A stretch of 64,000 nucleotides of DNA from positions 1,054,001 to 1,118,000 of the forward strand of contig OX637393.1 of NCBI GenBank assembly GCA_951799425.1. Reading direction: 5' to 3'. The translations under genes and the position numbers were made by a program. The notes below the pieces were generated by a model. It was not told where the DNA came from, did not search any database, and saw nothing but the letters and a program-made list of their open reading frames with translations. Below, one piece after another: positions 16,741-64,000 of the stretch (position 1 is its first letter; every line of letters starts with the position of its first letter). Origin of the DNA: Ilex aquifolium (taxonomy: Eukaryota > Streptophyta > Magnoliopsida > Aquifoliales > Aquifoliaceae).

Positions 16741-17252
16741 AGAAAATTACACTAACAACCCCTGAACTATGCTCCTTGTTTCAATTTACCCCCTAGCCTA
16801 TTCATTTCCTTACATTACACTTTAAACTATTGGTTTAAATCTCATGTTGCATGTCCCAATCGTTATTTTTTGCCTTATTCTTTATGGAAAGTCAAGGCAA
16901 AAATGGGGTTTTGCCCAACTGAGGAGAAAAGTGTCACATTTTTTAATATTTTAAAATTGGAAAATGCTATTTGGACTTAAAATATGTTTTTGATAATCAC
17001 AATCATTGAATAGATAATGAGTCACAATAAATGTTGAGAGTTACAGTGAAATCAATAATTGTGATTATCAAATTCACTTTTTAAGTTTACGTCACATTTC
17101 TTTTTTAAAATTTCATTTTTGCCCTAATTTGCTACGAGAAATTGGGCAAAATTCAATGATTGGGGCCATGTGAAACTTAAACAATTAGATAGCCTATGGG
17201 GCAAATGGGAAATGAAGGACATGGTCAGGGGGGTCTAAGCGTAATTTATCCC
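16741..17252. mobile_element. TIR element (MULE-like) in the pectate lyase 1 promoter
   Basis: The left end AAATTACACTAACAACCCC plus CTGAACTATG mirrors the right end CATGGTCAGGGGGGTCTAAG plus CGTAATTTAT over roughly 70 bp. The flanks ACGTATATG and ACATATATT agree at 7 of 9 positions. This CCCCTGAACTATG/AATTTACCCCC type of end is common in dicot repeats and is probably Mutator-like. It ends 79 bp before the ATG of the pectate lyase gene and contains a nested MITE. Confidence 0.6.
16959..17101. mobile_element. MULE-type MITE nested in the TIR element
   Basis: A close relative of the 15825-15977 MITE: same start GGAAAATGCTATTTGG, same fold-back GATAATCACAA/TTGTGATTATC and same TTTTTAAGTTTAC segment. 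The direct repeat TTTTAAAAT lies at both borders. It sits inside the 16741-17252 element, so it inserted later. Confidence 0.7.
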
Positions 17253-17330
17253 ACATATATTTGTGTATATATGTATACATTTGTGTACTTGTATGATATG
17301 CATTCCCACATCTCACTTCACAAGCCAGCC

Positions 17331-19446
17331 ATGGCCTCCCAAGCTTCTTTCCTTTTGATTTTAGCTCTTCTAATAATCTTCTGTTCTTCAACCTTGCAAG
17401 CTGACTACTATGTACCTAGTGGTGGTTCTAAGCCAAACCCGAAAATCATGAACAAAGTAGACTCTTGTTGGCGCACAAACCCTAACTGGGCCTCCAACCG
17501 CCGTGCATTGGCCGATTGTGCCGTCGGCTTCGGCAAAGATGCAATGGGAGGCAAGTATGGAGCCACATATGTTGTCACCAACCCGTCCGACGATCCCATT
17601 AACCCTAAACCCGGCACGCTTCGCTATGGTGTAATCCAAACGAAGCCTCTGTGGATCATTTTTGCTAAGGACATGGTGATAACACTCAAGAATGAGCTTA
17701 TTATGAATAGTTTTAAGACTATAGATGGACGAGGGGCTAAAGTGGAAATAGCCAATGGGCCTTGTTTTACTATACAAGGCGTTAGTCATGTGATCATACA
17801 TGGGATCGGGATTCATGATTGTAAGCCTGGGAAGTCCGGCATGGTTCGGAGCACACCGATGCATGTTGGCCGCCGGGGTGGCTCTGATGGTGATGCCATT
17901 GTTATATTTGCATCTTCGTATATTTGGATTGACCATTGCTCTCTCTCCCGTTCTAGTGATGGCTTGATTGATGTCATCCATGCCTGCACTGCTATCACCA
18001 TCTCTAACAACTACTTTTCCCAACATGATAAAGTAAGTGCACCATATATATATGTTTGCTTTCATTAGTGATTCAAGTGTTAAACATGTTGATATCATCG
18101 TCATCATACATAGTTTGTAACAAGATTGTAACATCATAGTTCATTTCATACATCTGATTGAATGCTACTAAAAAGTGTATGTAGCCTAGTTTTAAGTGTG
18201 TAACAGTCGTTAAGTAATGGGATCACATGGGTCTAACCTTGTAACCGATTGATACAACTATATTACACTGTCGTAGCGGATTTAATAGATAAAATGACCA
18301 TTTCATGCTTGCTTTGATGTGTATAACTACAAATCAAACCTCTTTACTTATTGCGTAGGTGATGTTATTTGGACACAACGATCAGTATAGAGCAGATAAA
18401 GCTATGAGAGTTACAGTGGTGTTCAACCACTTTGGCACTGGTCTAATTCAAAGGATGCCAAGGTGAGGAAGATATTTACAGTTTTGTCTCAGAAAGTTTA
18501 ATTAATTATAGTATGATACTAATGGAGTTCATGACACTACAGGGTAAGGTTTGGCTATGCCCATGTTGCCAACAATAGGTACGATGAGTGGCAGATGTAT
18601 GCCATTGGTGGCAGTGCTAATCCAACCATCTTCAGCGAAGGCAACTACTTCATGGCTCCCAACAAACCTGATGCCAAACAGGTGAGTAGTATAACCTTGT
18701 AAATCACTAGGGTCAAGTTCGACTCGATTTTGGCTTCTTTAATCTAAAAAATGAATCGAATAGTACTCATTTAATATTTAATCCTAGCCCAAATAATATT
18801 CCACTCGACTTACTACTCAGTAGTACTTTTGAGCTTCATTAATTTACACTAAATCAAATAGCCACTGGTTAGTGGATAAATTCCCCAACAATCTTGAGGT
18901 TACAAGTTCGAACGTGACGACAACCACGTTATACAAATAATGCGAAAGACTAAGTTTGCTTTGTACCGGTTTATCTAAAGACTAAGCTAAGTATTATTTG
19001 TCATATATAAATACCTTTTTTATGCTGAAAGAATGAGAAAATATCACTCTTTAACTTAATGGATGAAGCACCTAGGTGTGTGTTTTAGTCAATTCGCTTG
19101 AGGGACGAGCGGAATGGTTGAGCTCTAATTCAAACTCGTAGTACAAAAACGAGCCGTTCTTGAACATATTATCTAGAAACCTTAACTGAGCTTAAGCAAA
19201 ATTCTAACCACGAGCTGTGTATAACAGGTTACAAAAAGAGAGGTTAAAGGTGGTTGGAAAGATTGGAAGTGGAGATCAGCAAAGGATAAATTTGTGAATG
19301 GCGCATACTTTGTTCAATCTGGATGGGGAAGCTGTGCTCCCCTCTACTCTCGCACTCAATCATTTACAGTTGCTGAAGGATCCATGGTTCCAGCTCTAAC
19401 CTCCAATGCTGGTCCTCTGCGATGCGCTACCTACAAATCATGCTAA
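17331..19446 (+). CDS. Pectate lyase, Amb a 1 / LAT59-like (copy 1)
   Basis: Cleaves de-esterified pectin by beta-elimination in the cell wall. Exons 17331-18032, 18359-18462, 18543-18681 and 19228-19446, all GT-AG with matching phases, give 387 aa. The start at 17331 ([14 protein letters not shown]) gives a clean signal peptide. Polysaccharide lyase family 1 marks: [19 protein letters not shown], the parallel beta-helix core, [13 protein letters not shown], the calcium-binding Asp region SDGDAIVIF with WIDHCSLS and DGLID, the catalytic Arg region [16 protein letters not shown], and the C-terminal GWGSCAP with conserved Cys. The subtype resembles anther/pollen pectate lyases and the ragweed allergen Amb a 1. 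Intron 3 is long (546 bp) and carries repeat debris, including a SINE-like box B at about 18900. The proximal promoter is largely a transposable element. Confidence 0.94.
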
Positions 19447-25678: not shown

Positions 25679-25865
25679 AGTAAAGAGTGTAAGGCCTAAA
25701 ACCTCTAAAGTCCACATTAGCTCGTGCAGACACGTCTAGATGAAGCTACAAAATCTTACCAAACAACAAACTCAAACAAGTCTACAGTCCCAAACATGGC
25801 CACCACATTCTCATCTTCTATTTATTATGTCTTCTTCCTATGTCCTAAACCTCAACACTCAAGCC

Positions 25866-27735
25866 ATGGCATACCTAACTCCTCTCCTATTGCTTTCATG
25901 GTTCGTAGCATATTGTTCTTCATCCTCGTACGCTCACCCATTAGTCTATACGCCCAAAAAAACAATCCCAATGTATCTTCCAGGGTACCCTCAGCCTCAA
26001 AAGAAAATTATGAACACAATAGACGCTTGTTGGCGATCAAATCTGAATTGGGCGTCTAACCGGAAAGCATTGGCCGAGTGTGCAATAGGATTCGGCAATG
26101 GGGCTATTGGGGGGAAGAACGGTGCAATATACGTTGTCACCGACCCTTCTGATGACCCGATAAATCCAAAACAAGGCACACTTAGATATGGTGCAATCCA
26201 ATTTGAACCACTTTGGATCATTTTTGAGAGGAACATGGTGATTACACTAAAAAATGAGCTTATGATGAACAGTTACAAGACCATAGATGGGAGGGGTGTG
26301 AAGGTTGAGATTACAAATGGACCATGCATTACTGTGGAAGGTGTGAGCAATGTTATTATACATGGGATTAGCATTCATAACTGCAAGCCTGGGACACCTG
26401 GCCTTGTCCGAAGCACTCCCGAGCACGTTGGCCATCGCCTTGGCTCCGATGGAGACGCCATTACTGTATTTGCAGCTTCGAATATTTGGATTGATCACTG
26501 CTATCTTGCTAGGTGTTTTGATGGTCTTATTGACATCACTCATGCTTCAACTGCCGTCACTGTCTCTAACAACTATTTCACTCAGCATGACAAAGTAAGT
26601 GTAGGAAAAATCTCTGCATGACTAATTAGATCACAAGTCTCGAGATCACATAGAAGTTCTTTCAACTTCTTTTATTTATCAAACGAACAGAGCTTGAGCT
26701 TAATTTAAAAGCCAGTTTAATAACAGAGCTAGCATAGCCCGAGCAATGATTTGTTCAGCTCGTTAAACTCGTGAACATGTATACATATATGTAAATGAGA
26801 ATACCAGTGTGGCTTTGGAAAATATGTTCTGATTGATTTGCACTTCTAGGTGATGCTGCTTGGACATCGAGATGGCTATACAGCAGACAAAACCATGAAA
26901 GTTACTCTCGTCTTCAATCATTTTGGACCTGGTCTGGTTCAAAGGATGCCAAGGTAACATGGCTTAATTTCTGTGGAACTTTTTTTTTTTTTTTTGGTTT
27001 GGTTGGGGGGGGGGGGTGGGGGGGTAGGTCAGTTCAAACTTATTAACAACCCTAAAAGTTACAGATTGATATCGATCGATTCGATGATTTACAGGGTTAG
27101 GTATGGCTATGCTCATGTTGCCAACAACAAGTATGACCATTGGCTCATGTATGCAATTGGTGGGAGCTCTGATCCAACTATATTCAGTGAAGGGAATTAC
27201 TTTGTGGCTTCAAATGATCCTTACACAAAACAGGTTAGATACTATTCAGTCTTGCATTAAGATCATCCAGTATAAAGTACTAGAAGTGTCCGTTAGCACG
27301 AACACGACACGAACTCGAAAATAAAACAACCAATTTACATGAATAACAAATGTATTAAATTAGTGCTATACACGGATAATATGTTTAGTTGGTATTGTAA
27401 GAAAAACGTATGGATTTTATAAACATACATGACGTGACTGAAATAAAACACGATACGACTTAATTGACACACTTCTAGAAGTACATTTATGGTGTTACTT
27501 TGTGTGGCAGGTTACCAAGAGAGAAACTGGAGCTGAACAGATATGGAAGAACTGGAAGTGGAGTTCCTCCAAGGATGTGTTTGTTAATGGAGCTTATTTT
27601 CTTCCATCAGGATGGGGAAGTTGTGCACCACCATACTCTAGATCTCAATCATTTCCTGTTGCTCAAGGATCATTAGTTCCAAGCTTAACTTCTGATGCTG
27701 GTCCTCTGTTGTGTGTTGCTAACAGAGCATGTTGA
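25866..27735 (+). CDS. Pectate lyase, Amb a 1 / LAT59-like (copy 2)
   Basis: Paralogue of the gene at 17.3 kb with the same four-exon structure (25866-26594, 26850-26953, 27095-27233, 27511-27735), 398 aa. The chosen Met at 25866 starts a signal peptide ([20 protein letters not shown]). Family marks: [73 protein letters not shown] with the catalytic Arg, and [15 protein letters not shown]. Exons 2 and 3 have exactly the same lengths as in copy 1 (104 and 139 bp), which supports tandem duplication followed by clear protein divergence. Intron 2 has a T-run and G-run (26981-27026); intron 3 holds an hAT-like MITE. Likely role: pectin degradation in pollen or another growing wall. Confidence 0.94.
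27281..27477. mobile_element. hAT-like MITE in pectate lyase 2 intron 3
   Basis: Left end TAGAAGTGTCCGTTAGCACG, right end GACACACTTCTA in inverted orientation, with ACACGACACGAACTCG and AACACGATACGACTTAA in the arms. A partial duplication of flanking AAGTAC is seen. Length 197 bp; it nearly fills the intron. Confidence 0.6.
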
Positions 27736-30703: not shown

Positions 30704-32244
30704 ATGAGGGAAAACGAAGGAAGAAGCGGGAAAAAGATATCGGTGGGAGATGACAAAGGAAGTAGCAGAATAAACAGCTTACCGGACTCGATTCTCCTTC
30801 GCGTTCTCTCCTTTCTGGAGACGAAATACGTTGTGAGAACCTGTGTTGTCTCGAAAAGATGGGTGAACCTTTGGACCTCTGTCCCCAGTCTCATTTTCTC
30901 TTTCTCAGAACCCGATGCAGATTCAATGGACAGTGTCGAAAGATTTATGGATTTCGTCGATAGAGTACTACTGCTCCGTGATGCGTCAGTTATTCAAAAG
31001 TTCAGTTTGAGTGAGGACCCTTTTGGGCTGCCTGTCGATGTGAACCGTCTCAATTCATGGATAGTAGCTGTGACTAATCGTCGCGTTGAACAGCTTCGAA
31101 TCTCTATGGATCTGCGTATGGAGTTTCCTAACTTTCTTCCAGCTCTTTTTACTTGCAAATCGCTAGTGGAATTAGACCTCCAATTCCGTATTGTTGTTAA
31201 AGATTTTCCCAACTTTGTTTATCTTCCAAATCTCAAGACTCTCAACTTTTCTGTTCTTAATCCTGGCGAGAGTCTAAATCAGAAGTTTTTTAGTTGCCTT
31301 CCTGTGCTTGAGAATTTGGGTATAAGGGCGTACTTACATGAGGATAGAAACGTTGTACTTGATATATCTGTTCCTAAGTTGACGAAATTAAAGACCATTT
31401 TGTTGAGACAAGTGGAAGATTCTCCAATCAACTTTAAGGTTTTGATAGATGCACCAATTCTTGAGTCCTACAGGATTAGGGATGATTGTGTGGTTTCGTA
31501 TATGATAAAGACTCAATCCTCCTCTCTAGTCAGAGCAGAAATTGAAGCTGGGCAAAAGGTTTTCTGGGAGAATATGCATCCTCATCCTATTAGATGTATA
31601 GTTAAGCTTTTTAGAGGAGTATCTCGTGTTAAGTATCTAGGATTATTCGGCGCAACTATGATGGTAACTACACCACCTCTCTCTCTCTCTCTCTCTCTCT
31701 CTCTATGTATATATTTTGCTTGATATTTCTTGATTTCTTGTTTGACTATTATTTTCATGATTGTCTAAAGGCTATTGGTGGCATTAGTGGTAATCCTCTG
31801 ATTCTGTTTCCCAATGTGACACATTTGGAGATGTGTGTTATCTCTCTCCCAAAGTTGCCAAAGGTGCTTCAAATCATGCCTACACTTGAATATTTGAATG
31901 TGTATGTGTGGATTCCAGATGAGGAAGATGATGATGCTGAATCGGAATTTGTTTATGTTGATTTGAGTGAGGAAGGTGATGATTTTGTTGAGGAGTTCAA
32001 ATGGATGCAGTCATATGTAGTGCCTAGTTGTTTGGTATCCCATGTAAGAGTGATTAAAGTAAGTGAGTTTGATGGAACAGAGGATGAGCTGCAGCTGGTA
32101 CACTACTTGCTAAAGAACTCCCTAGTATTGAGTAAGATGACAATTTGTGTTAAACCTAATTTAACCAGAAACAAGAAGAAATTACTTGAGAAAATACCAA
32201 AATTTCCGCGTGGTTCAAAAACTTGTCAAATTGAATTTTCCTAA
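30704..32244 (+). CDS. F-box/LRR/FBD protein (copy 1)
   Basis: Substrate-recognition subunit of SCF ubiquitin ligases, by family. Two exons (30704-31663, 31771-32244) give 477 aa. The F-box lies at residues about 24-66 (SLPDSILLRVLSFLETKYVV, then VSKRWVNLW), followed by degenerate leucine-rich repeats (TCKSLVELDLQ, LPNLKTLNFSVLNPGESLNQ) and a C-terminal FBD domain (VPSCLVSHVRVIKVSEFDG, LQLVHYLLKNSLVLSKMTI). The intron contains a (CT)n run at its 5' end. Unlike copies 2 and 3, there is no second intron before the FBD: exon 2 reads straight through an acidic DEEDDDAESE linker. Target protein unknown; these families expand and change fast in plants. Confidence 0.93.
31676..31703 (+). repeat. (CT)n microsatellite in F-box copy 1 intron
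   Basis: About 13 CT units close to the 5' splice site of the single intron. Confidence 0.95.
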
Positions 32245-32379: not shown

Positions 32380-34501
32380 GGGACTTGGTTTGTAAGTTCT
32401 CTGACGGGAAGATACATGAAGTTGTGCTGTACTATTGGCAACCCTTAATTTGTTCTTTGTTGCTTTTCAGTTCTTCAATGCTTCTTCATATGGCGTGATC
32501 CAAAAGGAGCCTCTATTTAGATCATTTTCTCAAATGGCATTTTTTTTACCCTATAAGATACTGTGTAACTTTGCTGTGAGGCTTTTTTGATCTTCAGCGA
32601 TAAATTGGACGTGGATACACATTCTACACATCCACTACTTATAATCACTTTATATCCTGTTTTTTTATGGTTTATTTTCAACTTCATTGCCTGTTTAGGT
32701 TATGTTGCTTGGGAAAGATGATTACTTCAAATAAGAGGCCCGAAATAGTCATAACCTTTTAAGGCATGATTGTAGTTGATAAAGCTACTAGATGCTGTTA
32801 TATCTGTAAACTGGAGTAAACCCCATGACAGACCTGATACTGACATTGCAATTCAAGAACTCACCGTTGAGGGGTAGAACTGCTATAAGGTTTCTAGTGT
32901 TAGTTAAACATTCTAAGAGATTAGACCTAAGCATCTAGTCATATGGAGTTCCTCTCCTGCACCATAACCTCCGACTCAAAGCCTGAATTGACGTTGATCA
33001 TGCAGGCACCTCTTGTTGTTACCTCACCATAACACTTTGTAATGCTATCATTGTCAATGTTGCGAAAGAGGAGACCTCTGTTGTTTGGATGTTGCTGCTA
33101 TTTGAAGTACTAGGGACTTTTTTTTTTTCACCTCACAGTAAAAAATCTCTTCCCAATAAAAGCGGATGCTTTATTTTCCATCCTAGTACAAAGTACAGGA
33201 GAGTGAAGGTAAATTCTTGTATGTCCAAAAAAGGCTCTTTGAAGGCGAAACTTCTTGTCAGATTATTTTACTTTGCTAGGATTTCTTGTAATCCATTTCC
33301 GGACAAGGTTACTGTTATGAACTCATTGGTAGAACTTGTTCTTGAAACTGGCTTACAATCTAATCTTATTTTTATCATAACAGTTTCCCATTGCCTTCAG
33401 AAACCATTTCTCTAATGTACAAACTTCAGTCCTAAAATCACATCGTCTTCTAGTGGCTACACTAATTCATGAAATGATTGAACTTCTGCCCAAACTCAAT
33501 TATATTATCACTTTCTTCCTCCATGGGATTGTTCTTCTTTCTTAATCAAAATCACTTCTTGTGACTTTGACCAGGGCTCTGGCTCTGTCTTTTTTCTCCT
33601 TAAGCAACAGGTTTTATGAAACTTGCATTTGATGATGCTACAGAAATCTTATAGCTTTAGACCTTTCTTTTTTCTTCTCTGTTTTTTGTATGTGGAAAGG
33701 ATTCAATTCAATTGGTAAAACTCATATCTTCAGTATGGTTGTATGAAATTCGACGCTATTGTCACTTTTTTTTTTTTTACCCTAGCCTGTGTTCATGTCA
33801 TGAAGAGAAATTGTATGGTGTTTTTTTTTTTTTTTGGCCAAGAAAAAGGAAAAAGTGTTCGAGGGAGCAACGAAAAATATAAAACTAGAGTTCTTGTCAG
33901 AAAATTGAATGGAGCTTTTTTATTTTTTTTCTGTTTTATCTCGTTCAAGATGTTGTGCCATACATAATATGCCATCTCAAATCAAAATCAAGTTCCAAAA
34001 ACGATCCTTTCGAAAGGTCTTACTTCTTTCTTGACCAAATAGGTAGACTAGTCCCAATCAAAAAAAATCATAAATCGCTTGCCAACAGAAATTTAATTGA
34101 GTTAAATTTACGCGGGGTGGCGTATATGAACATATTGGATTAAGTGATGAAGTTGATTATGGTTGTGATGCTGCTGGAAGAAGAAGGGTTATGTTTTTGG
34201 GTTCAAACTGAAGAGCCTGCTTGGTAAATGGGAGAAGTCAAATGTCTGTTAGAATTTCGAAGCAGTTTTTTTGGGTAAATATCGAAGCAGTTGGATAATA
34301 CCAATGCAATATGTTACTGGATTCTTAGGTTTTTTTCTCGGAAAATCGAAACATCATTAAAAATGGACTACCCAAAAGACACATTATGATAGCTATATAA
34401 TCATCCGGCTCTCTAGTCAGAACACAAAGCTCTACTCTACTTCTTCACCTTTTTCTTATAGTATGTTTCTTCTGTTTGTTTTCCGAGAAAACATAACGAA
34501 A
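32380..34501 (+). repeat. Duplicated upstream block A (partner 41038-43250)
   Basis: From ACTTGGTTTGTAAG at about 32386 this spacer is collinear with 41038-43250, upstream of F-box copy 3, with roughly 90-95% identity and small indels. The 261 bp at 33933-34193 are identical to 42671-42931. The spacer holds the promoter and leader of F-box copy 2. Open frames here are fragments with no domain. Confidence 0.85.
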
Positions 34502-35254
34502 ATGGAAAGGAAAACAGATGGAAGGATGATGGTGGGAGATGAGAAAGAAGGAAGGAGCATCAACAATTTACCTGACTCCATTCTTCTTCACATTCTCTCC
34601 TTCCTGGAGATGAAATACGTCATGAGAACCAGTGTCGTGTCGAAAAGATGGGAGGATCTTTGGGCATCTGTTCCCAATCTCATTTTCTCGCTCACAGAAT
34701 CTGATGTGAAATCACAAATTCGTTTAGATAAATTTATGAATTTTGTCGATAGAATTCTCCTCCTTCGCGATTCGCCAAAAATTCAAAAGTTCAGTCTCAC
34801 TTGTACGGATAGGTTGGGGCGTCTCAACTGCAACCGTTCCAATTCTTGGATATGTTCTTTAGTTAAACGTAATGTTGAACAGCTCAAAATCAATTTTAGG
34901 ATGGATGTGATGCAGTTTAAGTTGCCTTCCGTACTCGTTACTTGTAAATCGCTTGTAGAATTACACCTCGTAGACAATCTACACGTAAGATTTCCTAGCT
35001 ATGTTCATTTTCCGAATCTCAAAGCTCTCAAATTTTTTATTATAAACCCAAGGGAAACCCTAAATCAGAGGTTTTTTTCTGGATGTCCTGTGCTCGAGAT
35101 TTTGATCATAAATGTTCTCTTAATCGATGATTATGAAGCCTTAATTGATATCAATGCCCCTGAGCTTTTCCCCAAACCCATTCCCTCTCAAAACTTATTT
35201 CCCCAACCCAGTCGGTTTTCAACTTAATTCCCAAACCCAGTCTTTTTTAAAAAA

Positions 35255-35485
35255 CGTCATTTGGAATGACGTCTTCTCGCCTTAAAACGTCATTTCAAAT
35301 GACGATTTTAATTTCAAATTTTTTGTATGAAAACGTCATTCCAAATGACGTTTTTAAAATTGTCATTTAAAATGACGTTTTTTAGCCTGAAATTTAAACG
35401 GACCGCTAACAGAAGCGTTAAAAATAAAAAGGGTGAAAAACGTCATTCTAAATGACGTTTTTATAAAACTCATTTAGAATGACGA
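35255..35485. repeat. Six TGACG palindromes, left TIR of the Pack-MULE
   Basis: Six copies of a 17-bp imperfect palindrome of the form CGTCATT-n3-AATGACG, about 25-60 bp apart, with the core TGACG/CGTCA at most ends. TGACG is the core site of TGA-type bZIP factors; here the sites could equally bind the transposase. Confidence 0.85.
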
Positions 35486-35690
35486 TTTAAACACCTCACT
35501 TATATTCCTCAAATCACTCGTTAGGTCAAAATTTTTGAAAACCACTCAGCTCTCCTCCTCCTCCTCCTCCTCTTCAACCACTCTCTCAGCCAGGCATTAC
35601 TCCGACGACCTCCCACCGAGTATTCAACAGACCCACAGCTGCTCCACCAGCGACTGAGCAGACCAGCGATGGAGCACTGATTGAGCAGCG

Positions 35691-36103
35691 ATTGAGTTAC
35701 TTGATGGAAACTCTGATGAAGCTGAGTATGCACGAACCGCTTTGTTCTCAAAGCATCCTGAGATGAAAGGTAAATAATACTTTATCTATGGCAGCTCTTC
35801 TCTTGTCACTTCTATTCTTTTGTTCCCTAATGGTGGTTTACTTTCCTTCCGATGGTTGGCAGACTGGCCTAAGGGTCACAATTTCCAGATCTTCAAGTTG
35901 GAAATCGAGGATATTTTTATGATTAATTGGTTTGGTGGTCCTAAACAGCTTACTGTGAAAGAGTACCTGCATATCGAAATGTGAGTTTATGAGCATTAAT
36001 AGCCATATCTCCAATAATTTTGCAGAGCAAAAGTTTTGGCCCCAGCTGATGCATTTCTGTTTCACAAATCATTTGCAGGAACAAAGTTGCATTTGTTGTT
36101 TGA
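35691..36103 (+). pseudogene. Captured 3' end of a CREG-family gene
   Basis: Exon pieces ..35769, 35863-35980 and 36079-36103 with intact GT-AG introns. The translation includes LDGNSDEAEYARTALFSKHP, then EMKDWPKGHNFQIFKLEIED and NWFGGPKQLTVKEYL, ending in a short tail and TGA. This is the C-terminal end of CREG-like (cellular repressor of E1A-stimulated genes; FMN-binding split-barrel) proteins, where HPEMKxWP and the FGGP motif are hallmarks. The N-terminal two thirds and the signal peptide are absent, so no functional CREG is expected. Retained introns show capture at DNA level. Confidence 0.8.
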
Positions 36104-38048
36104 ATCCTATTCTGATCTGCATTCCTCTCAGGTGTTTTCGTGCTGGACATGAAGGAGCTTGGGTGAATTAATGAACCTTTTCAAATAACATGTTACATTT
36201 GTGTATGTCAAAGGCAGTATGCTTCAGCTTATTGTTTTGAACAAAAATGCCTAGGCAATTAAATTGTAAATCAGTGCTTGTGTTGACAATGCTTCACTTC
36301 AATTCATGAATGTATATTTACAAACATACTAAGATCTGTTCTTTTAATATTTCCAGCAAAACATAGTCTTCTTTTACGAGGAATGGTTCTATGGGCTCAA
36401 TGCTAGGATTATACCTCATACATGCACCGCCTTACTAGAACTCCATTAAAGTCTTGTTTGGGTTGATCTTTGCAGACTGCCTAACACTAGCCAAACCACA
36501 TTAACATGTGGCATGTGCGGTACATTTGTGTTTTTTTTTTTTTCCGAGTTGTTAAATCGTGATACCATGTGTAAAGGATGACTTCATATCACTTTTGTAA
36601 CATAGCAAAGATTTTGAGTTTCCAGTGATGACTTCTTTAATGTCAATATGGTTTCTTAGGAGTCCTCTGTAGATATCCTGCTTATGAACACTTGCTTGTT
36701 GTGTTTCTTGCGTCTGCTCTTTTAGGATACTGTAATGGCAAGTACTTTACTTTAATCAAATTCCTTTTTTTTTTTTTGGATTGGAAATAATGTTTGGCTC
36801 GTCAGATTATGTGCCGTTCACTCCAACATGGCAAAAATGATATAAATTGGAGTGAAGAGGTAAAGTGCTTCTTATGGGCTAGGAATGTTGGATAATTTGG
36901 AGTGGTGCGGAAGGTTAACCAAAGGATGTGGCGAATAAGAGAGGCTTTTGTGATAAATAGCGGAATTTAATACATGGATGTTTATGTTATGTAATGAACA
37001 CTTTGGATTACTTGTGGATGGTGTTTCATATTGGGTATTTTCTAGCTTCTTGAGAGCTGTGACAAATGTTCCAAACCCTAGCATGTTGATTTTAGTAATT
37101 AGTGCTAAGTCCGGGGCCCACAGGAGTTGGTATCATTAAAAATAATAACACCTTACCATGGTTTTATTATTGGTTTTGTAAAATTGAACTATGAAATCGA
37201 TATAAAAGTTTTATATTTCTTCTCTTTTTCCCCATTAGTTTTACATTTTATAATTGGTATTAATCTTTTTCATTTAAGCCGTGCGCTTAAAATAGGGGAT
37301 GTGTGATAGAGGTCATGTTTGCTAAGGCCTAACGAATAAAAAGAGAAAAAAAAATAGAAAAAGAAACACCTTCCTAAAATTGGGATATTTTTCTAAACAT
37401 TCTTTTTTGAATTTATATATATTATTTTTAGCTTAAATTACATAAAATAACCTACAATAAACATGTCAATATATCTTCTTTAGAGTTAAAGCATAAATTA
37501 CCTAAAAACATTTAAATAGAGATAAATCAATAAACATGTCAATATTTCTAACAAAAAAACGTCATTTACAGTGACGTTTTTAAAAATATACTGAGTTTGA
37601 GAAATAAAATTTTAGGTCCGACTTGGTTTGAGGAAAAGCTCCTCCAGATTGATATGCTTTTATGACATGAGAAGTGAGATTATAATATTGAGATTCTTTT
37701 TATAGCATCTTTTTGATATAAAAGTGAGCTTTCAAAACACACGTTTTTAACTTTTTTCATTAAATATATGTTTTACAAATATGTTTTTATATTGAAAAAT
37801 ATGAAATTAAATTATGCTTTTATATTTTATTTTCAATTATAAAATAAGTTCATATTTATTATGAAAAGGGAATTAAATTCTAAAATTTATTTAAATTTTT
37901 TTTTTGTCTGGTGAATCATGATGTGAGATATAAGATGGAGTTATTAGCTTTTTATAAACTTTATTACAAGTTGGTGGTGATTTTTGGCTAAGACAAACGT
38001 TATTGTAAAAAACTGAGAGGGCAAATAGAAGTTAAAAAAAAAATTTGG
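36104..38048. other. Interior of the Pack-MULE, non-coding
   Basis: Probably begins with the captured CREG 3' UTR and downstream DNA (to about 37080), then AT-rich sequence. One further CGTCATTTACAGTGACG palindrome lies at about 37560. No exon recognised. Confidence 0.5.
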
Positions 38049-38055
38049 GAAGAAG

Positions 38056-38285
38056 GCGTCATTTGGAATGACGTCTTTAAAGACGTCATTTGGAATGACG
38101 TCTTCTGCGCATTTACTTTCTTAACGTCTGTTAAGGCTCCGTTTAAAATTCATGTTTAAAAACGTCATTTTAAATGACGACTTTAAAAACGTCATTTCGA
38201 ATGACGTTTTCATACAAAAAATTTGAAATTCAAATCGTCATTTGGAATGACGTTTTAAGGGGAGAAGACGTCATTCCAAATGACG
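38056..38285. repeat. Six TGACG palindromes, right TIR of the Pack-MULE
   Basis: Mirror array of the left TIR: six CGTCATT-n3-AATGACG palindromes, the first two only 12 bp apart. Confidence 0.85.
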
Positions 38286-39453
38286 ATTTTTAAAAAAGAC
38301 TGGATTTGGGAATTAAGTTTAAAAGTGATTGGGTTGGGGAAATAAGTTTTGAGGGGGAATGGGTTTGGGGAAAAGCTCCAATGCCCCTAAGTTGAGAAAG
38401 TTGAAGGCACATATAGATGCCTATATGTCTAAAGATTTTCCACCACCTGGTCACAAGATTAAGGTTTTGATAAGTGCACCTAGTCTTGAGGACCTTATTA
38501 TTCACGAAAAGAGTGGCCCTTGGTATGTGATAAAGAATCAATCCCCTTCTTTGGTGAGAGCGGAAATTGATTTTGACTTAAACAGGTACTATGTGGATGA
38601 TGATGCTTATAGCCATGTACTTGTTCTTTTGAAAGAAGTGTCCCATGTTAAGTATCTGGTGTTATTTGATCAAACTGTGAGGGTGAGTTTACTGTATTAA
38701 TTATGTGTGTGCGTGTGTGTGTCTATTTGTGCGCACGTGGGTATTTGTTACTTAACTGTTATTTGTATTACTTTTTGCAGTTTATTGCTCGCGTTGATGA
38801 TAATGCTCGTTTTACATTTTCTCATGTGACGTATTTAGAGTTGAAGTTTAAGTATTACAACTTTTATTATCTTTCTAATCTGCCTGGGGCACTTCAAAGC
38901 ATGCCTAATCTTGAAGCTTTGTATCTGGTGAGTCCAGAAGAGAACACTGTCTTAAATAAAAGTTCCCAAAAAAAGTTGTTCTTAATATGCAGCTTTTTAA
39001 GCTTGTTTTTTTTTTTTCCTTTCCTTTTTTGATCTAGAGCTCAACATTTGTACTTGGAGTTGCTGATAATTCGAGTGATGAAGATGATGATTTGGATAAG
39101 CTGTTCAATCTGATGCAGTCAAGTGTAGTGCCTAGTTGTTTGGTATCGCACTTGAGAGTAATTAAAATCAGTGCATTTGAGGGAAAGAATGTTGAGCTGC
39201 AGTTGGTAAAGTATTTGCTGAAGAACTCTGAAGTATTGGGTAAGATGACAATTTGTCTTTCTCGTAATTTAGCTGGCAAAGAGGTGAAAGTACTTGAGAA
39301 AATACTGAAATTTCCTAGGGGTTCAAAGACATGCCAAATTAGAATTTCCTAATGAAAAAGTGTTGCTGGGAGAGGCGGACCGGGTTTTTTTTTTTGCATA
39401 TAATCAAACACACCGGGTTTTGTTTTTTCAAATTATCCACCCGGTTTTGATGT

Positions 39454-39457
<4 letters not shown>

Positions 39458-39491
<34 letters not shown>
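39458..39491 (+). repeat. 34-base poly(C) run
   Basis: Uninterrupted C from 39458 to 39491. True length is hard to sequence and may be an assembly estimate. Confidence 0.8.
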
Positions 39492-41037: not shown

Positions 41038-43250
41038 AACTTGGTTTGTAAGTAATCTGACAGGAAGATACATGAAGTTGTGCTGTACGATTGGCAACCC
41101 TATAATTTGTTCTTTGTTGCTTTCAGTTCTTCAATGCTTTTTCATATGGCTGAACACTATGCTATAAAGTGTTGTTTGCAATGACACAGTGACAATACTT
41201 TGTTTTGGCGTGATCCAAAAGGAGCCTATTTAGATCATTTTCTCAAATGGCATTTTTCTAACCCTATAAGATACCATGTAACTTTACTGCTAGCCTCTTT
41301 TGATCGTCAGCGATAAATTGGATGTGGATACACATTCTACACATCCGCTACTTATAATCACTTAATATCCTGTTTTTTATGGTTTATTTTCAACTTCATT
41401 GCCTGTTCAGTTATGTTACTTGGGAAAGATGATAACTTCAAATAAGAGGCTCGACATAGTCATAACCTTTGACATTAAGGCATGAATTGTGGTTGATAAA
41501 GGTACTAGATGTTGTTATATTCATAAATTGGAGTAAACCTCATGACACTGACATTGCAATTCAAGAACTCGCTGTTGAGGGGCAGAACTGCTATAAGGTT
41601 TCTAGTGTTAGTAAACCATTCTAAGAGATTAGACCTAAGCATCTAGTCATATGGAGCTCCTCTCCCGCACCATAACCTTCGACTCAAAGCCTGAATTGAC
41701 CTTGATCATGCAAGCTCCTCTTGTTGTTACCTCACCATAACACTTTGTAATGCTATCATTATCAATGTTGTGAAAGAGGAGACCTCTAGTGTTTGGATGT
41801 TGCTGCCATTTGAAGTATTCGGGACCTTCTTTTTTTTTTCACCTCAGAGTAGAAAATTTCTTCCCAATAAAAGAGAATGCTTTATTTTCCATCCTAGAAC
41901 AAATTATAGGAGAGTAAATGTAAAATTCTTCTATGTACAAAAAAGACTGTATCTTTGAAGGTGAAACTTCTTGGCAGATTATTTTAGTTTGCTAGGATTT
42001 CTTGTAATCCTTTTTCGGACAAGTTCCTGTTATGAACTCGTGAGTATAATTTGTTCCTGTAACCGGCTTACAAGAGAAGGGTACTCAAGAGTTTATATAT
42101 ACACGTCTAATCTTATTTTTAACCGATGCAGAAACCATTTCTCTAATGTACATAATTCAGTCCTAAAACCACCTCTTGTCATCTGGTGGCTACTCTAATT
42201 CATCAAATGATTGAACTTCTGCCCAAACTCAATTATTATTACTTTCTCCTCCGTGGGATTGTTCTTCTTTCTTAATCAAAATCACTTCTCGTGACTTTGA
42301 CCAGGGCTCTGGCTCTGTCTTTTTTTCTCCTCAAGCAACAGGTTTTATGAAGTTTGCATTTGATGCTGGTACTGGACCTTTCTTTTTTCTTCTCTGTTTT
42401 TTGAATGTGGTAAGGATTCAATTGGTAAAACTCATTTATATGAAATTCGACGCTGTTGTCACTTTTGTGTTTTTTACCCAAGCCTGTGTTCATGTCATGA
42501 AGAGAAATTGCATGGTGATTTTTTACCCAAGCCTGTGTTCATGTCATGACATGAGAAATTGTATGGTGATTTTTTTTTTTGGCCAAGAAAAGGGAAAAAG
42601 TGTTCGAGGGAGCAACAAAAAATATAAAACTAGAGTTCTTGTCAGAAAATTGAATGTAGTTTTTTTTTGGGTTTTATCTCGTTCAAGATGTTGTGCCATA
42701 CATAATATGCCATCTCAAATCAAAATCAAGTTCCAAAAACGATCCTTTCGAAAGGTCTTACTTCTTTCTTGACCAAATAGGTAGACTAGTCCCAATCAAA
42801 AAAAATCATAAATCGCTTGCCAACAGAAATTTAATTGAGTTAAATTTACGCGGGGTGGCGTATATGAACATATTGGATTAAGTGATGAAGTTGATTATGG
42901 TTGTGATGCTGCTGGAAGAAGAAGGGTTATGGTTTTGGGTTCAAACTGAAGAGCCTGCTTGGTAAATGGGAGAAGTCAAATGTCTGTTAGAATTTCGAAG
43001 CAGTTTTTTTGGGTAAATATCGAAGCAGTTGGATAATCCCAATGTAGTATGTTACTGGATTCTTTTAGGTTTTTTTCTCGGGAAATCATAATTTCACTCG
43101 AAACATCATTAAAAGTGGACAACCCAAAAGACACATTATGATAGCTATATAATCATCCGGCTCTCTTGTCAGAACACAAAGCTCTACTCTACTTCTTCAC
43201 CTTTTTCTTATATTTTTCTTCTGTTTGTTTTCCGAGAAAACATAGCGAAA
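41038..43250 (+). repeat. Duplicated upstream block B (partner 32380-34501)
   Basis: Collinear with block A. It starts at ACTTGGTTTGTAAGTAATC and runs to the ATG of F-box copy 3. It differs by small indels and a short extra repeat at 42469-42568 (TTTTTTACCCAAGCCTGTG twice). Confidence 0.85.
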
Positions 43251-44847
43251 ATGGAAAGGAAAACAGATGGAAGGATGATGGTGGGAGATGAGAAAGAAGG
43301 AAGGAGCATCAACAATTTACCTTCCTCCATTCTACTTCACATTCTCTCCTTCCTGGAGATGAAATACGTCATGAGAACCAGTGTCGTGTCGAAAAGATGG
43401 GAGGATCTTTGGGCATCTGTTCCCAATCTCATTTTCTCGCTCTCAGTATATGATGTGAAATCACAAATTCGTTTAGATAAATTTATGAATTTTGTCAATA
43501 GAATTCTCCTCCTTCGCGATTCGTCAAAAATTCAAAAGTTCAGTCTCACTTGTACGGAATGGTCTAGGTGTCTCAATTGCTACCGTTTGAATTCATGGTT
43601 GTGTTCTTTAGTTAAACGTAATGTTGAACAGCTGAAAATCGATTTTTGTATGGATGTGCAGCAGTTTAAGTTGCCTTCAGTCCTCGTTACTTGCAAGTCG
43701 CTTGTAGAACTACACCTTGGACAAAAGTTTTATGTAATATTTCCTAGCTATGTTTATTTTCCGAATCTCAAAGTTCTCCTGTTTTCTATTATGGACCCAA
43801 GGGAGAGCATAAATCAGAGTTTTTTTTGTGGATTCCCTATGCTTGAGAGTTTGATCATAGATGTTTTTGTAATTGAGGGTACTGAACCATTAATTGATAT
43901 CAGTGCCCCTAAGTTGAGAAAGTTGAAGATTATATACGCGGATGAGTTTGATGATAATTCCATTGGACACAATGTTAAGGTTTTGATAAAAGCACCAAAT
44001 CTTGAACACCTTATTATTGACACTCGGTGTGGCCCTTGGTATTTGATGAAGAATCAATCCTCCTCCTTGGTGAGAGTAGAAATTAATTTTGAGGTGGACT
44101 ATTACTATGTAGATGATGATACTTCTAGCTGTGTACTTGTTCTTTTGAAAGAACTGTCTCATGTAAAGCATCTGGTGTTATTTGATGAAACTATGAGGGT
44201 AAGTTTACAGTACCGATTATATGTGTGTCTATTTGTGTATGCGTGTATTTGTTACTTGACTATTATTTGAATTACTTTATGCAGTTTTTGGCTCAAGTTA
44301 ATGATCATGATCGTTTTACATTTTCAAATGTGACGTATTTAGAGTTGAAAAAGTTGAGGGAGGACTGCTTGTATGCTCATTCAGATCTGTTTGGGATACT
44401 TCAAAGCATGCCTAACCTTGAAACTTTGTATGCGGTGAGTCTAGAAGAGAACACTATCTGCAGTAAAAGTATTCAAAAAAAAAGTTGTTCTTAATCTGCA
44501 GCATTTAAGCTTTTCTTTTTTCTTTTTTGACCTAGAGCTCAGCATTCACAGTTGGAGATTATGATTCGAGTGATGAAGATGATGATTTGGATAAGAAGTA
44601 CAATCTGATGCAGCCAAGTGTAGTGCCTAGTTGTTTGGTATCGCACTTGAGAGTAATTAAAATCGGTGCATTTGAGGGAAAGAATGTTGAGCTGCAGTTG
44701 GTAGAGTATTTGCTGAAGAACTCTGAAGTATTGGATAAGATGACAATTTGTCTTTCTCGTAATTTAGCTGGCAAAAAGGTGAAAGTACTTGAGAAAATAC
44801 TGAAATTTCCTAGGGGTTCAAAGACATGCCAAATTAGAATTTCCTAA
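43251..44847 (+). CDS. F-box/LRR/FBD protein (copy 3)
   Basis: Three exons (43251-44198, 44285-44434, 44536-44847) give 469 aa, all GT-AG and in phase. The F-box is at residues about 20-62 (NLPSSILLHILSFLEMKYVM, VSKRWEDLWASVPNLIFSL), then LRR-like repeats (TCKSLVELHLGQ, FPNLKVLLFSIMDPRESINQ), an acidic SSDEDDDLDK linker and the FBD domain (VPSCLVSHLRVIKIGAFEG, LQLVEYLLKNSEVLDKMTI, FPRGSKTCQIRIS). Sister of copy 2: about 94% identical over the first 100 residues and about 93% over the FBD, but near 70% in the LRR part. Probable SCF substrate adaptor; target unknown. Confidence 0.94.
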
Positions 44848-45249
44848 TGAAAAAGTGTTGCTGGGAGAGGCAGACTGGATGTTTTTTTTTATGAACATGC
44901 ACAGAATCAAACACATGTACTGAGTTCTGTTTTATCAAACTATCCACCCGGGTTTTGATGTACTACCCTTTTGAATGTATGAATTCTCACAAAGTTGATG
45001 CTTGAAAGATTGTTTAGTTTATATTCCAGTTACTGGGATTGCCATCATACTAAAAGCTTTTCCATATTATAAGCTTTTTTTTTTTATGGGAGATGGGGAA
45101 TGAGCAATATGAAGTAACTCATCAGTACCTATAGCTTTAGGTTTTTACATGAGTTTGGAATATGAACAAGGACATTGGACCTAGTGTTGGACTTACTTGT
45201 CTTCACAATAGTTTTCATTCATCTCAGCAACTCAACAACACCTCCTCTT
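44848..45249. other. 3' flank of F-box copy 3
   Basis: Shares GAAAAAGTGTTGCTGGGAG and TGATGTACTACCCTTTTGAA with the 3' flanks of copies 1 and 2. No gene. Confidence 0.6.
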
Positions 45250-62129: not shown

Positions 62130-63065
62130 GTCATTATTGACTTGAGGGCAAAATTACAACATTAGTGGTAAAATTTACCACTTTAATGAATCATTTACCA
62201 CTTTTATGGTAGTTTTTACCACTATTGGGGATAAGCATTTACTAAAGCAATGGTAGTTTTTACAACATTTAATGGTCCATGATCGATCATGGACCATGTT
62301 TGATCGATCAATATGTTAGGTGAGTTGTAAGGAATGGATCATTTACCACTTTAATGGATCATTTACCACTTTTATGGTAGTTTTTATCACTATTGGGGAT
62401 AAGCATTTACTAAAGCAATGGTAGTTTTTACAACATTTAATGGTCCCATGATCGATCATGGACCATGTTTGATCGATCAATATGTTGGGTGAGTTGTAAG
62501 GAATTGATCATTTACCACTTTAATGGATCATTTACCACTTTTATGGTAGTTTTTACCATTATTGGGGATAAGCATTTACTAAAGCAATGGTAGTTTTTAC
62601 AACATTTAATGGTCCATGATCGATCATGGACCATGTTTGATCGATCAATATGTTAGGTGAGTTGTAAGGAATGGATCATTTACCACTTTAATGGATCATT
62701 TACCACTTTTATGGTAGTTTTTATCACTATTGGGGATAAGTATTTACTAAAGCAATGGTAGTTTTTACAACATTTAATGGTCCCATGATCGATCATGGAC
62801 CATGTTTGATCGATCAATATGTTGGGTGAGTTGTAAGGAATTGATCATTTACCACTTTAATGGATCATTTACCACTTTTATGGTAGTTTTTACCACTATT
62901 GGGGATAAGCATTTACTAAAGTAATGGTAGTTTTTACAATATTTAATGGTCTCATGATCGATCATGGACCCTGTTTGATCGATCAATATGTAAGGTGAGT
63001 TGTAAGGAATGGATAATCCAATAATATATACAAATTTAATGGATCATTTACCACTTTTATGGTAC
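62130..63065 (+). repeat. 168-bp minisatellite, five copies in A-B-A-B order
   Basis: The landmark CATGGACCATG recurs at 62289, 62457, 62625, 62794 and 62963 (last slightly changed), so the period is 168-169. Copies 1 and 3 share GGTCCATGATC and TTAGGTGAG; copies 2 and 4 share GGTCCCATGATC and TTGGGTGAG. This is a 337-bp dimer amplified at least twice. Each unit has two GATCGATC palindromes. Confidence 0.92.
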
Positions 63066-63250: not shown

Positions 63251-64000
63251 AAAACTGACTAATTAATCCAATTAACATGTAATTTCATCAAATCAACACC
63301 AAATTAACAACAAATTAACATTCAACTCATCAAATTAGAATTCAATTCATAAAATTAACACCAAATTAACACTCAATTTCATTTAATTAACATTCAATTT
63401 TTTCTAATAAGCATTTAATTCACGAAATTAACATTCAAATTCAACTACTTAACATTAAATTAACCAAATCAACTTTCAATTTCATTCAATTAACACCCAA
63501 TTCATCAAATTAATATTCAAATTATCAAATTAACATTCCGATTTATCTAATTGACATTCAATTTTCTCAAATTAACATGTAATTAACATTTAATTTCTCA
63601 AATTAACATGTAATTAACATTTAATTTATCAAATTAACACTCAATTTCATCTAATTAACATTCAATTTTTTCTAATAAGCTTTTAATTCACGAAATTACC
63701 ATTCAAATTCAACTAGTTAACATTAAATTAACCAAATCAACTTTCAATTTCATTCAATTCCCACCAAATTAATCAAATTAACATTCAAATTATCAAATTA
63801 ACATTCCGATTTATCTAATTGACATTCAATTTTATCAAATTAACATGTAATTAACATTTAAGTTATCAAATTAACATTCAATTTCATCTAATTAACATTC
63901 AATTTTTTCTAATAAGCATTTAATTCACGAAATTAACATTCAAATTCAACTACTTAACATTAAATTAACCAAATCAACTTTCAATTTCATTCAATTAACA
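63251..64000 (+). repeat. AT-rich array, ~240-270-bp higher-order units of AATTAACATT
   Basis: Short AATTAACATTCAATTT-like units are arranged in larger repeats: CACGAAATTA recurs at 63421, 63689 and 63926, with long shared context. It runs off the window end. Confidence 0.88.

What the first reader, a model, noticed from the sequence alone, without database searches (positions are those of the whole stretch)
35162..38378. Pack-MULE carrying three exons of a CREG gene, sitting inside an F-box gene
Precise borders are visible: exact terminal inverted repeats, a 10-bp target duplication and a clean empty-site comparison with the paralogue at 43.9 kb. Inside are the last three exons and two introns of a CREG-family gene, captured as DNA. 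A non-autonomous Mutator element moving a piece of an FMN-fold secreted-protein gene into an SCF adaptor gene could yield new chimeric or antisense transcripts.
Basis: partly seen in the sequence, partly recalled or inferred. Interest (0 to 1): 0.85.

Follow-up and report, generated by a model that had tools for sequence, protein, structure and literature searches.

The report
Gene-carrying Mutator-like transposon splitting F-box gene
A transposon that carries the tail end of another gene (a CREG gene) has landed inside an F-box gene in what looks like a plant genome; it is a clear but ordinary example of a known kind of mobile element.

Summary
Window 35162-38378 (3217 bp) has inverted terminal repeats of about 323 nt, about 88% alike; only the outermost 24 nt are identical. 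An exact 10-bp duplication, CAATGCCCCT, flanks it. It sits in exon 1 of an F-box/FBD gene whose tandem paralogue at 43.9 kb shows the empty site. Inside lie the last three exons and two introns of a CREG gene (joined exons: Pfam PF13883, E 1.4e-21), so the piece was captured as genomic DNA. By structure it is a Pack-MULE. The superfamily could not be proved: no plant genome was held, so there was no sister copy, transposase or parental gene to compare.

Corrections and additions: (a) a third, diverged terminus lies inside, ending at 37641 and oriented like the right end, as in published MULEs with an extra solo TIR; (b) CREG and F-box run the same way, so rightward transcription gives sense, not antisense, CREG RNA; (c) a stop precedes the CREG frame, whose first ATG is in the last codons of its first exon; (d) the insertion leaves an F-box frame of 220 codons plus 21 from the TIR, while the rest of the host gene stays open.

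Ordinary in kind; interest is mainly the anatomy.

The parts
35162..38378 (+). Whole element, non-autonomous Pack-MULE-like transposon, 3217 bp
   Evidence: TIRs, 10-bp duplication and empty site
35152..35161 (.). Left copy of the target site duplication, CAATGCCCCT
38379..38388 (.). Right copy of the target site duplication, CAATGCCCCT
35162..35484 (+). Left terminal inverted repeat, with six palindrome-like ACGTCATTNNNAATGACGT sites
38057..38378 (-). Right (outer) terminal inverted repeat, with six such sites (the first begins at 38056)
37559..37641 (-). Internal third terminus: one palindrome-like site and the end motif, oriented like the right end, diverged, about one 29-nt subrepeat shorter
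35489..35690 (+). GC-richer stretch (51.5%) between the left TIR and the CREG homology, origin unknown
35691..35769 (+). First captured CREG exon (left border approximate)
35863..35980 (+). Second captured CREG exon
36079..36103 (+). Last CREG exon with the stop codon
   Evidence: frame kept over the GT-AG junction; exon too short to hit Pfam by itself
36104..37558 (+). Interior without a recognised gene; 36104-37120 (36.6% GC) may be CREG 3' flank, 37121-37555 is AT-rich (24.4% GC)
   Evidence: origin inferred
37642..38052 (.). AT-rich stretch (22.4% GC) between the inner and the outer right terminus, origin unknown; no other match in the window
34502..35161 (+). 5' part of the host F-box gene (220 codons); the frame runs into the TIR and stops at 35225-35227
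38389..39349 (+). 3' part of the host F-box gene, with the FBD domain in the frame 39038-39349
43251..44847 (+). Paralogous F-box/FBD gene with the empty site near 43901-43910

Best explanation
A non-autonomous Mutator-like DNA transposon of the Pack-MULE type. At an earlier locus it acquired the 3' end of a CREG gene (three exons, two introns) as genomic DNA. A transposase made elsewhere then acted on its long TIRs and moved it into exon 1 of one member of a tandem F-box/FBD family, after that copy had separated from its paralogue at 43.9 kb; repair of the staggered cut made the 10-bp duplication. The inner diverged terminus points to a composite history: a right end no longer used lies inside, and a related end 737 bp further right is the boundary that moved. 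Effect today: the F-box frame ends after 220 host codons and 21 TIR codons, before the FBD domain, and the CREG piece is probably not translated. Shown: borders, duplication, empty site, CREG homology with introns, third terminus, truncation. Inferred: superfamily, transposase in trans, route of capture, absence of a function.
For: TIR arms; exact duplication; empty site in the paralogue; CREG domain with two canonical GT-AG introns in frame; third terminus; the host gene stays open on both sides of the insertion and keeps F-box and FBD domains; no transposase domain in 10 interior open frames. The TIR and TSD lengths fall in published MULE ranges: 100-500 bp and 9-11 bp (PMC3310237, parts 1-2 of 6), TSD 8-11 bp (PMC6446971, passages).
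Against: No sister copy, autonomous partner or parental CREG gene could be examined, so the superfamily rests on TIR and TSD lengths. The TIR arms differ at 39 of 325 columns; if they were identical at insertion, the insertion is not recent. The lone window-wide search for TIR relatives found none outside the element.
Confidence: 0.9

Rival explanations
1. Composite element made by joint mobilisation of neighbouring insertions: an older related element ended at 37641, and a second end of the family lay to its right at 38378; the left end and the outer right end were used together, carrying the old internal terminus along. This refines the best explanation rather than opposing it.
For: The internal terminus is real: alignment score 37.5 against a maximum of 24.5 in 1000 block shuffles and 28.0 for the best of 3446 tiles elsewhere in the window; it is 60 of 78 identical to the left and 60 of 77 to the right arm over the aligned part. 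A figure legend of PMC8903248 describes joint mobilisation of neighbouring insertions after deletion of, or mutations at, the internal TIRs. PMC3310237 reports MULEs with one extra solo TIR, some inside Pack-MULEs.
Against: No inner left end pairs with it: best score 18.0 against a shuffle median of 17.5 and maximum of 24.0 of 200. No target duplication partner for it in the element: the nearest are a 9-mer with one mismatch at 35093, outside the element, and an 8-mer with one mismatch at 35883. Replication slippage or capture of a stray TIR, both raised in PMC3310237 section 4.2, would give the same picture.
Confidence: 0.45
2. The captured CREG piece is expressed from the left TIR and has been kept for a function, as a short protein or a regulatory RNA acting on the parental CREG gene.
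For: The 73-residue CREG frame has no internal stop and both introns keep GT-AG. PMC3310237 states that MULE TIRs can hold promoters.
Against: A stop codon stands just before the CREG frame and its first ATG is at 35763, leaving 49 codons; earlier out-of-frame ATGs open short frames. Only positions 111-166 of the 167-position domain profile are covered. An open frame of 210 nt can survive by chance (inference). No expression data.
Confidence: 0.06
3. Not a Mutator-like element but another long-TIR or foldback-like transposon.
For: The TIRs are built of repeated palindrome-like units (13 matches in the element, 0.36 expected) and one strand folds strongly as DNA (z -11, 100 shuffles), as in foldback elements (recalled). 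No transposase was seen.
Against: A 10-bp duplication and TIRs of over 300 bp fit the published MULE ranges. PMC8903248 gives 8 nt for hAT, 5 nt for CACTA in its own data, TA for Mariner and TTA/TAA for PIF.
Confidence: 0.06
4. The paralogue once held the element and lost it by precise excision.
For: Not excluded by two copies alone.
Against: The paralogue has a single uninterrupted target site without footprint.
Confidence: 0.02

Closest known systems
Pack-MULEs (rice, Arabidopsis, maize, tomato and other plants)
   Same: Long TIRs, duplication of 9-11 bp, no transposase seen inside, a host gene fragment with introns captured as DNA.
   Different: Nothing in kind. A CREG fragment was not found described: the search 'Pack-MULE' + 'CREG' gave 4 papers, seen as a listing with abstract starts only.
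MULEs with multiple TIRs, solo-TIR types (Ferguson and Jiang 2012, PMC3310237)
   Same: One additional terminus inside a Pack-MULE; no recognisable target duplication beside it.
   Different: Here the extra terminus is strongly diverged, about one 29-nt subrepeat shorter, and similar over only about 80 nt, while the paper speaks of at least 100 bp of extended similarity.
Pack-TYPE elements formed from neighbouring insertions (PMC8903248)
   Same: An internal mutated end, as expected when an outer end takes over.
   Different: Only one internal end is seen, not two; the paper's worked examples are from other superfamilies as far as the passages read show.

Membership tests
Mutator-like element (MULE) | Target site duplication of 8-11 bp | tested here: met
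   10 of 10 bases; range
Mutator-like element (MULE) | Long terminal inverted repeats, typically 100-500 bp | tested here: met
   about 323 nt, 87.7% identical; range
Mutator-like element (MULE) | Ends recognised by, or shared with, an element encoding a MULE transposase | not testable with these tools
   no whole genome held; none of the window open frames scanned hit a MULE transposase (only part of the window's open frames)
Mutator-like element (MULE) | Several copies with the same ends at different sites | tested here: inconclusive
   no further copy within the 64-kb window; genome not held
Pack-MULE | Carries a fragment of a non-transposon host gene | tested here: met
   CREG domain, E 1.4e-21
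Pack-MULE | No transposase inside | tested here: met
   10 interior open frames of 43-86 residues without a Pfam match at E up to 1; shorter frames not scanned
Pack-MULE | Parental gene elsewhere in the genome | not testable with these tools
   no whole genome held; no CREG parent found by self-comparison of the window
MULE with an additional solo TIR | Additional terminus of the same family inside the element | tested here: met
MULE with an additional solo TIR | At least 100 bp of extended similarity between external and internal TIR | tested here: not met
   81-82 aligned columns; so it resembles, but is not filed under, that class
MULE with an additional solo TIR | No recognisable TSD at the internal terminus | tested here: met

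The most novel reading that the evidence does not exclude
Gene fission by transposon: the element has cut an F-box/FBD gene into two separately expressible genes. The 5' part would give an F-box protein of 220 residues plus a 21-residue tail from the TIR, without FBD, which could bind the SCF core without its normal target. In the right TIR an ATG at 38359 lies in frame with the 3' half of the exon (113 codons if unspliced), so outward transcription could give an F-box-less LRR/FBD protein.
Probability: 0.04. Interest if true: 0.5.

Novelty: new member of a known kind. Interest (0 to 1): 0.25.

Why it matters
It is a clean, dated-by-empty-site case of gene-fragment capture as DNA and of an F-box gene broken by a mobile element. 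The surviving inner terminus is a possible trace of how such elements extend their borders, a step that PMC3310237 and PMC8277862 both call unresolved. By itself it does not change the picture.

Tried and rejected
Other captured genes: 10 interior open frames against Pfam at E up to 1 gave no match. Relatives of the element: no match in plasmids and none in viral contigs for the 24-nt end. An 18-nt end in bacterial and archaeal genome contigs gave 7 exact matches, about the 7.5 expected by chance (arithmetic), so they were not followed. Papers: the 16-nt end string gave 0 papers.

Selection on the palindrome-like units: 11 of 114 columns inside them differ between the arms against 28 of 211 outside, Fisher p 0.38, so no sign of extra constraint. 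ACGTCA occurs 9 times in the element out of 16 in the window; reading it as a bZIP or cell-cycle motif rests on recall and was not tested.

Relaxed selection after the insertion: between the two F-box copies dN 0.106, dS 0.164 in 220 codons 5' of the site and dN 0.290, dS 0.374 in 73 codons 3' of it. Changes assigned to the split copy with the third copy as outgroup were 15 nonsynonymous and 8 synonymous 5', 18 and 4 3'; to the paralogue 24 and 6, 11 and 5. Too few and too fast-evolving to show an effect. The dating of the insertion by TIR divergence was rejected, because the arms need not have been identical at insertion.

An outward promoter in Mu TIRs: the one paper opened for it (PMC545602) used 'outward' only for sequencing primers, so that point is recalled.

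Full report
What is there. Window 35162-38378 is a 3217-bp element with terminal inverted repeats: 35162-35484 and 38057-38378, 87.7% identical over 324 columns, 39 of 325 ungapped columns different in a global alignment, the outer 24 nt identical. It is flanked by CAATGCCCCT on both sides. A local duplication places a paralogous stretch at 41206-44968; the element interrupts the match exactly at the duplicated 10 bp, and the paralogue has the site once, as CAGTGCCCCT. The word 'exact' fits the target duplication, not the whole TIRs.

The repeats. The arms contain units like ACGTCATTNNNAATGACGT. Up to 3 mismatches there are 13 matches in the window, 6 in each arm and 1 at the inner terminus, against 0.36 expected. 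The left arm folds strongly as single-stranded DNA (-65.5 against -28.3 kcal/mol for 100 shuffles). The units are no better conserved between the arms than the rest. They may be transposase binding sites; that is inference.

A third terminus. The end motif occurs three times in the window: at both ends and at 37625-37641, in the orientation of the right end. The stretch 37500-37641 aligns to the right end with score 37.5, above all of 1000 block shuffles (maximum 24.5) and above the best of 3446 tiles elsewhere in the window (28.0). Identity is 60 of 78 to the left arm and 60 of 77 to the right arm over 81-82 columns. From its palindrome-like unit to its end there are 64 nt, against 92 at the outer right end (coordinates), a difference of about one of the 29-nt subrepeats seen. 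No inner left end pairs with it and no convincing target duplication lies beside it. Ferguson and Jiang (PMC3310237; [quoted passage not shown] The present element resembles these, but its inner end is similar over less than the 100 bp they describe. PMC8903248 (passages) proposes that neighbouring insertions are mobilised as one element when internal ends are deleted or mutated, which would also leave such a trace.

The captured gene piece. The exons ending at 35769, 35863-35980 and 36079-36103 join through canonical GT-AG introns into an open frame of 73 residues ending in a stop. The product hits Pfam PF13883 (CREG beta-barrel) at E 1.4e-21, positions 112-166 of 167, and human CREG at E 1.2e-13. 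Unspliced frames also hit it: E 9.4e-12 and E 0.0027, the second below the family's cut-off. The introns show capture as DNA. The left border near 35691 is approximate. A stop codon lies at 35682-35684 and the first in-frame ATG is at 35763. Ten further open frames of the interior have no Pfam match. GC is 51.5% in 35489-35690, 36.6% in 36104-37120 and 24.4% and 22.4% in the AT-rich stretches on either side of the inner terminus, so the interior is probably of more than one origin.

The host gene. The element lies in exon 1 of an F-box gene (PF00646, E 3.2e-10) with an FBD domain 3' of the insertion (E 4.4e-15). With the flanks joined in a script, exon 1 is open for 323 codons to a stop at 38698, beyond a likely GT donor near 38683 (the donor is inferred from the paralogue's GGGTAAGT). 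So the insertion is the only disabling change seen in the parts compared. The interrupted frame gives 220 host codons and 21 TIR codons, stop at 35225-35227. CREG and F-box share the + strand, so rightward transcription makes sense CREG RNA. In the right TIR, one of the nine ATGs from 38057 to 38388 (the one at 38359) is in frame with the 3' half of the exon, 113 codons; one in three would be in frame by chance.

What it is. Defining features tested and met for a MULE: duplication length and TIR length. Not testable: transposase and copies elsewhere. For Pack-MULE: gene fragment met, no transposase domain in the frames scanned met, parental gene not testable. I file it as a Pack-MULE by structure, at 0.9.

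Novelty and interest. Rice alone has more than 3000 annotated Pack-MULEs (PMC8903248, passage; PMC3310237 lists 2853). A CREG capture was not found in print with the search 'Pack-MULE' + 'CREG' (4 papers, listing only). This is a new member of a known kind. The inner terminus is the least ordinary part. Interest 0.25.

Limits. The species was not identified; 'plant' is inferred from the gene content. No genome, RNA or sister copy was available.

Noticed in passing
39458-39491: A run of 34 C just behind the split F-box gene; may be a real tract or an assembly artefact.
   Followed up: no
62173-63014: Tandem array with a 169-bp unit, 5 copies, 96% matches.
   Followed up: no
63289-64000: Long, irregular AATTAACAT-rich tandem array running to the window's end.
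   Followed up: no
30704-32244, 34463-39349, 43251-44847: Three related F-box/FBD genes in tandem, evolving fast.
   Followed up: partly
17196-18068 and 25740-26621: Two pectate lyase-like genes with 74% DNA identity over about 600 bp.
   Followed up: partly
1015-1813: Leucyl-tRNA synthetase pieces (editing domain E 2.8e-21; a weak class I synthetase match below cut-off).
   Followed up: no
38359-38697: ATG of the right TIR in frame with the 3' half of the interrupted F-box exon, 113 codons.
   Followed up: partly
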